Shown piece by piece: positions 15,471 to 17,482 of a stretch of 17,729 bases of DNA. Numbering within the stretch: position 1 is the first letter of the stretch; the number at the start of each line of letters is the position of its first letter. The position numbers and the translations under genes were made by a program. Under the pieces are notes generated by a model, which worked only from the letters and a program-made list of their open reading frames with translations, did not search any database and had not been told where the DNA came from. The stretch is from Candidatus Fermentibacterota bacterium (lineage in GTDB: Bacteria; JAFGKV01), in contig JAUXFG010000077.1 in assembly GCA_030620115.1 (NCBI GenBank), positions 1 to 17,729 on the forward strand. Direction: 5' to 3'.

Positions 15471-15508
15471 TAAATCTCTAGTAAATCCATGGATTTACTA
15501 GAGATTTA
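15471..15508. repeat. Perfect 38-bp zero-loop palindrome
   Basis: The sequence from 15471 to 15508 is its own reverse complement, centred on CCATGG at 15489/15490. Each half reads TAAATCTCTAGTAAATCCA. Symmetry ends sharply at 15470 and 15509. It is AT-rich against a GC-rich background, and no T-run follows on either strand. Options are a cruciform-forming site, a dimeric-protein operator, a transposon or integration footprint, or a repeat unit. Confidence 0.85.
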
Positions 15509-15716: not shown

Positions 15717-16559
15717 TCATACGTGGCCCTGTCCGGCATACACAGGTGTCAATTCTACGGCGAACGATAGCTGCATTCTCTTAATCTTGCTTGCTATCCG
15801 CTCTCGTTCCTGATGGGATGGACGTGGCAGTCGAGCCGTGTCAGGCCACATGTTGTGAACTCGGCCATCAAGTATCCGGCCGGCGCGTTTCTTGCGCACT
15901 CCGCCCCATTGCTTGAAGAAGAATGGCACGTTGGCCTTCTGGCATTCATCTCGAATTGATCTAACCCAATTTGCCTGCAATGTGCGGGCTCCGGGGCCAC
16001 TCTCACCACCCACAATAACCCAATCGATACCCCCTAGATCAATCTCTCCGAGATCTTCCAGCAACGGCTCGAATGAGATAAACCGGACCTCTGCTCGTGT
16101 TCCGCGTATCTCATCGATCCGTGGCAAACCATGTCGGCGGTCCTCGACGCTTATACCCAACCATATGTGGGGAGATGAAGTCAGTCTCTTTGGTAAACGA
16201 TTGGTCACTTGCCGCATCCGATACGCACGTTTGGTGAGGATTTGGTAGGTATGCCAGTTGGCCAGAGCCATCACCTCAAATACGGCTCGTATATACTGAT
16301 ATGGCACCTCTTCATGGAACAAATCGCTCATCGAGTTCACGAATATCATGCGTGGCTGGGGCCACCTGATTGGGTCGCCCAGGCTCTTGGGCACCAGACG
16401 GAGATCGAATCCCTGCTCATATGGATGCCCTGGTATCCCACGCCATCTCTCCGCGAATTTCTCAGCATAACAGTGGTCACATCCGGGGCTGATTCTGTTG
16501 CATCCGCGGACCGGATTCCAAGTGGCGTCGGTCCATTCGATGTCTGATGATTGGGACAT
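15717..16559 (-). CDS. DUF5131 / phage Gp37-Gp68 family three-Cys protein
   Basis: A 280-residue protein. ATG 16559 is chosen because GGAGA sits 5 nt upstream and the family's N-terminal motif IEWTDATWNPVRGC follows at once. The frame stays open to 16997 but that part is tcmP out of frame. The three-Cys motif is C-x6-C-x2-C (Cys20, Cys27, Cys30; GCNRISPGCDHCYAE), resembling a radical-SAM-like cluster site. Further family blocks are FVNSMSDLFHE, YQILTKRAYRM, IWLGISVED, RFISFEPLLEDLG, DWVIVGGESGPGAR and PFFFKQWGG. Family members occur in phages and mobile regions, often beside a tcmP gene, as here (8-nt gap). Molecular function is not established. The core looks intact even though its partner is interrupted. 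Confidence 0.92.
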   Translation of the reverse strand: MSQSSDIEWTDATWNPVRGCNRISPGCDHCYAEKFAERWRGIPGHPYEQGFDLRLVPKSLGDPIRWPQPRMIFVNSMSDLFHEEVPYQYIRAVFEVMALANWHTYQILTKRAYRMRQVTNRLPKRLTSSPHIWLGISVEDRRHGLPRIDEIRGTRAEVRFISFEPLLEDLGEIDLGGIDWVIVGGESGPGARTLQANWVRSIRDECQKANVPFFFKQWGGVRKKRAGRILDGRVHNMWPDTARLPRPSHQERERIASKIKRMQLSFAVELTPVYAGQGHV

Positions 16560-16567
16560 TGCATCTC

Positions 16568-16789
16568 CTATTCGAATATGCTCAACTGGTCGGTGCTGTA
16601 CTTCCTCGCTTGCTGCCAGAATTCGCGCCCGCGAGCATGCCGGCTGAAAAACGCCAAGTGATAAAGAGACAGATTCTTGTCTGCGGACCTGACAAGGACC
16701 ATGTCTTCCATGCCTTCGTACATGTAGCCGATGACCTGCATTTGTCTTCCGAAGAAGTCGGAGACGAACGTGCCAAAAGCCTTTCCACC
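16568..16789 (-). pseudogene. tcmP: Orphaned 3' part of tcmP after the TAG codon
   Basis: In the same frame as the upstream tcmP segment, 73 codons run without interruption to a second TAG at 16570-16568. They encode recognisable family sequence: GTFVSDFFGRQMQVIGY, then MVLVRSADKNLSLYHLAFFS and REFWQQARKY. No frameshift is needed, only suppression or reversion of the TAG at 16792. Internal re-initiation at ATG 16741 (GGAAG a few nt upstream) would give a ~57-residue fragment and seems unlikely to be functional. The DUF5131 start lies 8 nt beyond. Confidence 0.8.
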
Positions 16790-17410
16790 CTATTTCTCCC
16801 GTTCCCAATGACTTCGCCACCGGGTGTTTCCAAGAAAGAGATCCAACACCTTGTTTCCACATGAGGTGTAAACAGCTTCGTTTCGGTGCGCATCCATGTA
16901 TGAAGGAATGAGGACCAGGAAATCCACATATCTCTGTGCCATGGCGCGTATTGTGTCGAAGTGAAGGTTCTGGATATCGAAGGGGTCCACAAGACAAAAT
17001 GTCAAAGCCGTGCGTTCCCTACTGCCCTGCGGCATAGCCGCCAGGATCTTCTCAGTTGACTGGTTGATATCGCCAACGATGAACCTATAATCGCCGCTTG
17101 GCTCAATGCGCTTCACCCTAGTTTCCAAGGCTTCGAGCGCAGCTTTGTTGATATCACAGAAGATGTAGCGATCAAACCTGTCAGGGATATCAAGAGCCAG
17201 AATCGGCGACGCTGGAATGATGGCACCTGTATCCTTGATTCTCGAGCGCCCGGTTCCGGCAAAAAGGTCCACATAGGCACGACAGTCCCATTTGTCCTTC
17301 ATGCCGGTGGCGAATGTTCGGGCGTAATTTGAGACGAGTCGATATTTCCGCTCAGCCCAAGGCCCAACTTCAGGTGTCAGAAGCCCATCGTCCTGCAGCT
17401 GTGGCAGCAT
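16790..17410 (-). CDS. tcmP: Three-Cys-motif partner protein TcmP, truncated by in-frame TAG
   Basis: The open part is 206 residues. The ribosome-binding region just before ATG 17410 reads AGGGGGTGAT, a strong anti-SD match. GPWAERKYRLVSNYARTF is the family N-terminus. A class I methyltransferase-like fold is visible: motif I VDLFAGTG (47-54), an acidic residue after strand 2 (CDIN, Asp86), VGDIN (Asp114) and VDPFDIQNL (from 141). The frame stops at TAG (16792-16790), codon 207, just after the conserved FLGNTRWR. The same frame then continues for 73 sense codons with typical TcmP C-terminal sequence. Full length would be 280 codons, usual for the family. The gene may be a nonsense pseudogene, a base error, or read through. 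Reaction and substrate of TcmP are not known. Confidence 0.88.
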   Translation of the reverse strand: MLPQLQDDGLLTPEVGPWAERKYRLVSNYARTFATGMKDKWDCRAYVDLFAGTGRSRIKDTGAIIPASPILALDIPDRFDRYIFCDINKAALEALETRVKRIEPSGDYRFIVGDINQSTEKILAAMPQGSRERTALTFCLVDPFDIQNLHFDTIRAMAQRYVDFLVLIPSYMDAHRNEAVYTSCGNKVLDLFLGNTRWRSHWEREK

Positions 17411-17453
17411 CTATCACCCCCTATGCTATTCTCGATGCATACTGAACAAAACA

Positions 17454-17482
17454 ACAGTACCGCATATCGCTGGTGTTGTCAA
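17454..17482 (-). promoter_or_regulatory. Promoter of the tcmP-DUF5131 operon with overlapping inverted repeat
   Basis: On the minus strand, TTGACA (17482-17477), 17 nt, then TACTGT (17459-17454): a perfect -35 with a 4/6 -10. Transcription would start near 17447, giving a ~37-nt leader. TACTG at the -10 is mirrored by CAGTA ten nt downstream, so an inverted repeat spans the -10 and start site, a typical place for a repressor operator. No regulator gene is visible. Confidence 0.6.

What the first reader, a model, noticed from the sequence alone, without database searches (positions are those of the whole stretch)
15717..17410. TcmP plus DUF5131 three-Cys pair as a stand-alone accessory module
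Seen: two adjacent minus-strand genes, 8 nt apart, with their own promoter and a putative operator, next to a housekeeping operon and a palindrome-rich spacer. Known: the two families are recurrent partners, DUF5131 is also called phage Gp37/Gp68, and neither has an established reaction. Inference: a methyltransferase-like protein plus a CxxxxxxCxxC iron-sulfur-type protein suggests a nucleic-acid or small-molecule modification system, perhaps linked to phage conflict. This is the best candidate for an undescribed system here.
Basis: partly seen in the sequence, partly recalled or inferred. Interest (0 to 1): 0.6.

Follow-up and report, generated by a model that had tools for sequence, protein, structure and literature searches.

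The report
Broken methyltransferase beside intact radical-SAM-like gene
This is a known but uncharacterised pair of bacterial genes, a methyltransferase and an iron-sulphur enzyme resembling a DNA-repair enzyme; in this genome the methyltransferase gene is cut short by a stop signal, and relatives link the pair to DNA-damage and phage-defence genes.

Summary
TAG is an ordinary stop here and the genome has no PylS, so the copy looks broken (recent mutation or assembly error).

Modelling and profile comparison place DUF5131 in the radical SAM superfamily (nearest solved fold spore photoproduct lyase, Z 13.9), with an invariant but unusual CX6CX2C. TcmP is an RlmJ-like methyltransferase. In 38 of 38 full-length TcmP places from 290 genomes, a radical-SAM-type partner is adjacent or fused; only 25 are DUF5131.

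PADLOC already lists the pair as a phage-defence candidate (PDC-M41/M30). I also find an SOS link: core SOS genes lie within 3.5 kb of TcmP in 4 of 39 genomes (0.38 expected, P about 0.0007). In M. tuberculosis the recA operon includes Rv2735c, taken here to be TcmP.

TcmP is disrupted more often than its partner (9 against 1, P 0.02). The suspected operator fails as a LexA box; the promoter is unsupported.

Best reading: a DNA modification or repair enzyme pair, its methyltransferase half probably dead here. The reaction remains unknown.

The parts
16793..17410 (-). tcmP, N-terminal 206 codons (ATG 17410; stop TAG at 16792-16790): Rossmann methyltransferase core with motifs YVDLFAGTG and LVDPFD
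   Evidence: TIGR04474 1.6e-30; model mc5d1c8511117, RlmJ-like
16790..16792 (-). in-frame TAG stop codon inside tcmP (codon 207)
   Evidence: '1 TAG'; the column is variable in 42 relatives; no PylS in the genome
16568..16789 (-). tcmP 3' part (73 codons + TAG), still homologous: last helices and beta6-beta7 of the methyltransferase fold
   Evidence: TIGR04474 229-260, E 0.0055; identity to relatives 0.40 against 0.45 before the stop
15717..16559 (-). DUF5131 (phage Gp37/Gp68 family), 280 aa, intact; CX6CX2C at residues 20-30; radical SAM-like, nearest solved fold spore photoproduct lyase
17440..17459 (-).
15471..15508 (.). 38-bp perfect palindrome in the spacer; its 28-nt core recurs at the imuB end in the same genome (dispersed repeat)

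Best explanation
The locus is a degraded copy of the TcmP-DUF5131 module. Shown by computation: TcmP has the fold and ordered motifs of an RlmJ-type SAM-dependent nucleic-acid methyltransferase; DUF5131 belongs to the radical SAM superfamily, its CX6CX2C region aligning with the cluster motif of undoubted radical SAM proteins that take its place beside other TcmPs. Inferred: DUF5131 binds a [4Fe-4S] cluster and SAM, and the two enzymes act together on DNA bases, modifying or repairing them when DNA is damaged or foreign DNA enters. Here the amber codon at position 207 removes the last helices and two core strands of TcmP, so only DUF5131 is probably made in functional form. Which base is touched, and whether the reaction adds or removes a group, is not known.
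For: Fold: DUF5131 model pLDDT 91, best match SPL (Z 13.9, 2.9 A over 195 residues), then viperin 11.6 and RlmN 11.0. TcmP model pLDDT 90, RlmJ top by Foldseek (3.6e-7) and Z about 15, with aligned motifs YiDaFAGaG/YLDTHAGAG, gSpl/GSPL and DPyG/DPPY. Partner swap: all 38 full-length TcmP places among 290 genomes have a radical-SAM-type partner next door or fused (25 DUF5131, 10 other radical SAM or SPL-like, 3 fusions, one with PF20903 SPL at 7e-15). DUF5131 aligns to the CX3CX3C partners by profile (P 1e-6). DNA link: winged helix (PF22560) in long TcmPs; lexA, recA-recX or Y-family polymerase beside the pair in several lineages. Published: Rv2735c is co-transcribed with recA-recX (PMC3062782) and lies in a mitomycin-responsive cluster with Rv2734, recX and recA (PMC5057432). 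Broken copy.
Against: No reaction is known for either family and no substrate was tested. SOS genes are near only about one pair in ten. The window's own pair has no SOS gene in view (the contig ends 319 bp upstream of tcmP) and no supported LexA box. RlmJ acts on rRNA, so the target could be RNA. DUF5131 itself is not recognised by the Pfam radical SAM model, and its CX6CX2C is not canonical. The TAG could be an assembly error. That Rv2735c is the TcmP gene (BCG_2748c in PMC7387457) and Rv2734 its DUF5131 partner rests on gene order and memory.
Confidence: 0.5

Rival explanations
1. Anti-phage system: the pair marks or attacks invading DNA, as PADLOC's candidate systems PDC-M41/M30 suppose. 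This overlaps with the best explanation but has no role in ordinary DNA repair.
For: P0001 matches PDC-M41B (1e-100), P0002 PDC-M41A (2.5e-21). Restriction genes recur within 2.5 kb (Eco57I 5, N6_N4_Mtase 3, type I S 2 of 253 neighbours). Plasmid and prophage pairs sit beside Abi genes, a type ISP enzyme, an integrase or a repressor.
Against: Genes 5.5 kb or more away in the same loci also include many defence genes, so enrichment close to the pair is only suggestive. recA-recX, lexA and Y-polymerase links point to repair. I know of no infection test.
Confidence: 0.35
2. RNA modification: TcmP methylates an adenine in rRNA or tRNA, like RlmJ, and the radical SAM partner adds a second change, as RlmN or MiaB do.
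For: RlmJ is the nearest relative of TcmP by profile and fold; RlmN is among the fold matches of DUF5131; one pair lies beside queA (L150).
Against: Patchy distribution (about 14% of genomes), presence on plasmids and phages, and winged-helix and SOS links fit DNA better than housekeeping RNA.
Confidence: 0.15
3. Toxin-antidote logic: TcmP makes a harmful DNA change that DUF5131 removes, so TcmP is lost first and DUF5131 often stands alone.
For: TcmP is the broken partner in 9 of 10 discordant pairs (P 0.02). DUF5131 without TcmP is common (159 phage records with DUF5131 against 9 with a ThankyouJordi-type TcmP). Every full-length TcmP has a partner.
Against: Small numbers; MAG frameshifts add noise; in some loci both genes are broken (L132, G033). 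The same pattern follows if DUF5131 simply has a second use.
Confidence: 0.15
4. The TAG is not a real lesion: it is an assembly or sequencing error, or it is read through, and the module is intact.
For: The sequence after the stop is still nearly as conserved as before it (0.40 against 0.45 identity) with a coding-like GC pattern.
Against: No pyrrolysyl-tRNA synthetase (23.7 bits against cut-off 178). TAG is the normal stop of EF-G, yebC and ruvC. The stop column is not conserved. A family member (G001) keeps only a TcmP remnant beside intact DUF5131, showing that the loss is tolerated.
Confidence: 0.25

Closest known systems
TIGR04474 TcmP with PF07505 DUF5131 (phage Gp37/Gp68)
   Same: Both families, order TcmP then DUF5131, short gap, three-Cys motif; scores well over both cut-offs
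   Different: TcmP here carries an in-frame TAG; short form without the winged helix
PADLOC phage-defence candidates PDC-M41 and PDC-M30
   Same: P0001 matches PDC-M41B/M30B (about 1e-100), P0002 matches PDC-M41A (2.5e-21)
   Different: They are candidates, not proven systems; the methyltransferase gene is broken here
Spore photoproduct lyase (radical SAM DNA repair enzyme, PF20903)
   Same: Closest solved fold to DUF5131 (Z 13.9); true SPL-family proteins replace DUF5131 beside some TcmPs
   Different: DUF5131 has CX6CX2C, not CX3CX2C, and is not hit by the SPL or radical SAM Pfam models; about 10% identity
RlmJ, 23S rRNA A2030-N6 methyltransferase
   Same: Closest fold to TcmP, with three shared motifs in the same order
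   Different: Profile E only 0.007; DPF/DPY in place of DPPY; different context

Membership tests
TIGR04474 TcmP | Score over curated cut-off (53 bits) | tested here: met
   106.9 bits for the 206-aa ORF; 130.6 read through
TIGR04474 TcmP | One open, full-length gene | tested here: not met
   In-frame TAG at codon 207
PF07505 DUF5131 | Score over gathering cut-off (28.9) | tested here: met
   323.9 bits, profile 2-243 of 243
PF07505 DUF5131 | Three-Cys motif | tested here: met
   C20, C27, C30 invariant in 30 relatives
Radical SAM superfamily | Radical SAM barrel fold | tested here: met
   Model Z 13.9 to SPL, 11.6 viperin, 11.0 RlmN; profile link P 1e-6 to PF04055-positive partners
Radical SAM superfamily | Canonical CX3CX2C and PF04055 hit | tested here: not met
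   CX6CX2C; Pfam finds only PF07505
Radical SAM superfamily | [4Fe-4S] cluster, SAM cleavage | not testable with these tools
   Needs protein
Spore photoproduct lyase family | PF20903 match | tested here: not met
   No PF20903 hit for P0001; met by partners L146, L147, L152 and the L148 fusion
RlmJ family | RlmJ fold and motif order | tested here: inconclusive
   Fold and three motifs agree, but no Pfam hit for the 206-aa ORF and profile E 0.007
Phage-defence candidate PDC-M41/M30 | Both component models match, adjacent genes | tested here: met
   gap 8 nt. TcmP was read through for the match
Phage-defence candidate PDC-M41/M30 | Protects against phage | not testable with these tools
   Needs infection tests
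SOS regulon member | LexA box shared with lexA or recA of the same genome | tested here: not met
   TACTGN10CAGTA at chance in the genome, not found in the upstream stretches of lexA and recA that were read, no known box enriched upstream of 92 relatives
Pyrrolysine-decoded gene | PylS present, conserved position | tested here: not met
   No PylS over cut-off; column variable

The most novel reading that the evidence does not exclude
TcmP with a radical SAM partner (DUF5131 or SPL-like) is an undescribed two-enzyme DNA base repair or modification pathway of the DNA-damage response, carried into plasmids, phages and defence islands; TcmP is the costly half, so it is repeatedly lost while the radical SAM enzyme stays.
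Probability: 0.3. Interest if true: 0.75.

Novelty: new member of a known kind. Interest (0 to 1): 0.42.

Why it matters
The pair is widespread (about 15% of the genomes sampled) and has no known reaction. Treating DUF5131 as a radical SAM enzyme related to a DNA-repair lyase, and TcmP as an RlmJ-like methyltransferase, gives a concrete test: look for a base change in DNA after damage or infection, with and without the pair. The recA operon of M. tuberculosis seems to carry the same methyltransferase, so existing damage-response data could be reread in this light.

Tried and rejected
Pyrrolysine or general amber recoding: no PylS; TAG is a normal stop.

LexA box TACTGN10CAGTA before tcmP: attractive by eye, rejected. 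It occurs three times in the genome against eight for the reversed control, the other two copies lie inside ORFs, the lexA and recA upstream stretches that were read lack it, and none of the other known LexA box types tried is enriched in relatives.

Sigma-70 promoter: nothing on the minus strand.

Hotspot of TcmP breaks at residues 200-220: six of about twelve breaks lie there (G000, L103, L109, L126, L127, L132), perhaps because the segment is variable; numbers too small to press.

Clear enrichment of defence genes close to the pair against far: family counts are higher near (274 and 248 against 110 PADLOC models), but one restriction enzyme matches many models and the far parts also hold defence genes, so only suggestive.

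This TcmP subfamily in viral contigs: none found. AbiJ_NTD5 search was uninformative, with no control ringing. Solved relatives by sequence for DUF5131: none credible. Papers on DUF5131, PF07505 or the GMT winged helix: none in the library.

Full report
WHAT IS THERE. The two genes lie on the minus strand at 17410-15717. DUF5131 starts at ATG 16559 and runs 280 codons to 15717; it matches PF07505 over its whole length at 323.9 bits. TcmP homology starts at ATG 17410. That end is right, but the frame is interrupted: TAG at 16792-16790 closes the ORF after 206 codons. The 73 codons after it still match the end of TIGR04474 (positions 229-260), and the whole-genome search reports '1 TAG' inside the match.

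IS THE STOP REAL? TAG is the stop of EF-G, yebC and ruvC in the same window. The genome has no pyrrolysyl-tRNA synthetase (23.7 bits, cut-off 178). In 42 relatives the column holds sixteen different states, so no special residue is conserved there. The part after the stop is nearly as conserved as the part before it (0.40 against 0.45 identity; for a reference relative 0.44 against 0.46) and keeps a coding-like GC pattern. This fits a recent nonsense change or an assembly error, not old decay and not recoding. In the predicted fold, residues after 206 form the helix 212-226, strands 238-241 and 248-255 and the helix 259-272, part of the methyltransferase core, so the 206-residue product is unlikely to be active (inference). 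In the only other genome of the family with the locus, G001, DUF5131 is intact (53% identical) and TcmP is reduced to a C-terminal remnant.

WHAT THE PROTEINS ARE. The DUF5131 model (pLDDT 91) matches spore photoproduct lyase best by both methods: Foldseek ranks 1-4, probability near 1 but E only 2e-3, and VIA-align Z 13.9, 2.9 A over 195 residues, ahead of viperin (11.6) and RlmN (11.0). These are radical SAM enzymes. By sequence, a profile of DUF5131 aligns with the profile of the CX3CX3C partner proteins (P 1e-6), which are themselves clear members of PF04055 and weak matches of PF07505 over the same region. The alignment pairs the cysteine region and the following CYA, and TKR with TKG. 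So DUF5131 is best seen as a radical SAM relative with extra residues between its first two cysteines. Cluster and SAM binding were not tested. The TcmP model (pLDDT 90) is closest to RlmJ (Foldseek 3.6e-7; Z about 15, with tRNA methyltransferase Trm1 tied). A profile of TcmPs reaches RlmJ at E 0.007 with the SAM motif, the GSPL motif and DPPY in order. Long TcmPs carry a winged helix, PF22560, which suggests DNA contact (inference). The short form here does not.

HOW STRONG IS THE PAIRING? In 290 genomes, 54 had a DUF5131 match and 42 a TcmP match. From those tables and the fetched neighbourhoods I count 38 full-length TcmP places over the cut-off. In 25 the neighbour is DUF5131. In ten it is another radical SAM or SPL-like protein (for G189 by motif and a weak PF07505 hit only; for G262 it is divergent, 117 bp away). 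In three the two are fused (L139, L141, L148). L148 is TcmP, winged helix and SPL in one chain. No full-length TcmP lacks a partner. In 57 further loci from named genomes, TcmP precedes DUF5131 by a short gap in nearly all cases not cut by a contig end.

ASYMMETRIC DECAY. In those loci I looked for stops, frameshifts and insertions. TcmP alone is broken in L103, L109, L112, L122 (transposase-like insertion), L126 (a type IIG restriction enzyme inside the gene), L127, L130 and L133; with G001 that makes nine. DUF5131 alone is broken once (L116). Both are broken in L132 and G033. The window's own gene, being the index case, is not counted; a stop seven codons before the end in L098 is not counted either. 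Nine against one gives P 0.021 (length-corrected one-sided 0.020). The loci were found through TcmP, which works against the trend, but MAG errors add noise. I treat it as a lead.

CONTEXT. PADLOC lists the pair as phage-defence candidates: P0001 matches PDC-M41B and PDC-M30B at about 1e-100, P0002 PDC-M41A at 2.5e-21. Restriction genes recur among neighbours within 2.5 kb, but distant genes of the same loci also show defence models. Mobile copies sit beside two Abi genes (Leisingera plasmid), an integrase (P. aeruginosa plasmid), an integrase and an immunity repressor (Gordonia phage ThankyouJordi) and a type ISP enzyme (Rhizobium plasmid). Most phages with DUF5131 seem to lack TcmP (159 records against 9 for one TcmP query).

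SOS LINK. Searching all neighbourhoods with LexA, RecA, RecX, UmuC and ImuB gave nine hits, all within 2.5 kb of the pair and none further out (identities). Examples: recA, TcmP-SPL fusion, recX in L148; lexA 23 bp before TcmP in L149; a UmuD/LexA-type protein and a Y-family polymerase around L078. In 39 genomes with TcmP from the 290-genome sample, lexA, recA or a Y-polymerase lies within 3.5 kb in four (G007, G011, G057, G077), where 0.38 is expected (P about 0.0007). The two counts share some loci, so they are not independent. The lexA table was cut short, so this is a lower bound on observed cases. In M. tuberculosis, Rv2735c is co-transcribed with recA and recX (PMC3062782) and clusters with Rv2734, recX and recA among genes responding to mitomycin (PMC5057432). 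BCG_2748c carries the TcmP domain (PMC7387457); that it is Rv2735c, and that Rv2734 is its DUF5131 partner, follows from gene order and my own knowledge. SplB-like radical SAM proteins were tied to the SOS network before (PMC3765255). In S. meliloti a TcmP gene (SMa2243) is listed with the Hna phage-defence gene SMa2245 (PMC12445080).

REGULATION OF THIS COPY. The dyad TACTGTTGTTTTGTTCAGTA before tcmP looks like a LexA box. I tested this and dropped it: the pattern is at chance in the genome, the other copies lie in ORFs, the lexA and recA upstream stretches that I read lack it, and relatives show no known box. The promoter scan found nothing on this strand. The contig ends 319 bp upstream of tcmP, so upstream genes are unseen.

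VERDICT. An ordinary member of a widespread, uncharacterised pair, probably broken in its methyltransferase here. What I found no earlier account of is at family level: a partner-swap argument that DUF5131 is a radical SAM enzyme, a measured SOS link, and preferential loss of TcmP. The paper library used is incomplete, so earlier accounts may exist.

Noticed in passing
L082:3514-5355(+): A DUF5131 gene in a Methylomirabilota MAG carries an intein (CLAPETQ...THN) placed exactly before the third Cys of the three-Cys motif, with a LAGLIDADG domain.
   Followed up: partly
L126:10600-14750: TcmP of an Ignavibacteriales MAG is interrupted near residue 207 by a 1011-aa type IIG restriction-modification gene and a 207-aa gene.
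   Followed up: partly
L148:7730-11690: Fusion TcmP-winged helix-SPL (719 aa) lies between recA and recX; the same genome (G057) has a second TcmP and SPL-like pair 23 bp after lexA (L149).
   Followed up: yes
window 15471-15508; L178:272-299: 38-bp perfect palindrome; its 28-nt core recurs at the end of imuB in the lexA2-imuB locus, so it is a dispersed repeat of this genome. The RNA hairpin is strong (z -4.6).
   Followed up: partly
L116:4299-4990: DUF5131 of a Bacteroidetes MAG has TGA where relatives have the near-invariant Cys206; could be a lesion, an error or selenocysteine.
   Followed up: no
L139:7536-9287(-), L141:8845-10620(+): TcmP fused directly to a radical SAM domain (584 and 592 aa) in two lineages.
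   Followed up: partly
G000:C53:28700-29287 (L177) and G000:C197:25605-26222 (L178): The genome has two LexA genes; the second lies directly upstream of an imuB-like gene.
   Followed up: no
L184:5804-9245: A Rhizobium rhizogenes plasmid holds two TcmP genes within 3.5 kb, beside a type ISP restriction enzyme and a DEAD/DEAH helicase.
   Followed up: no
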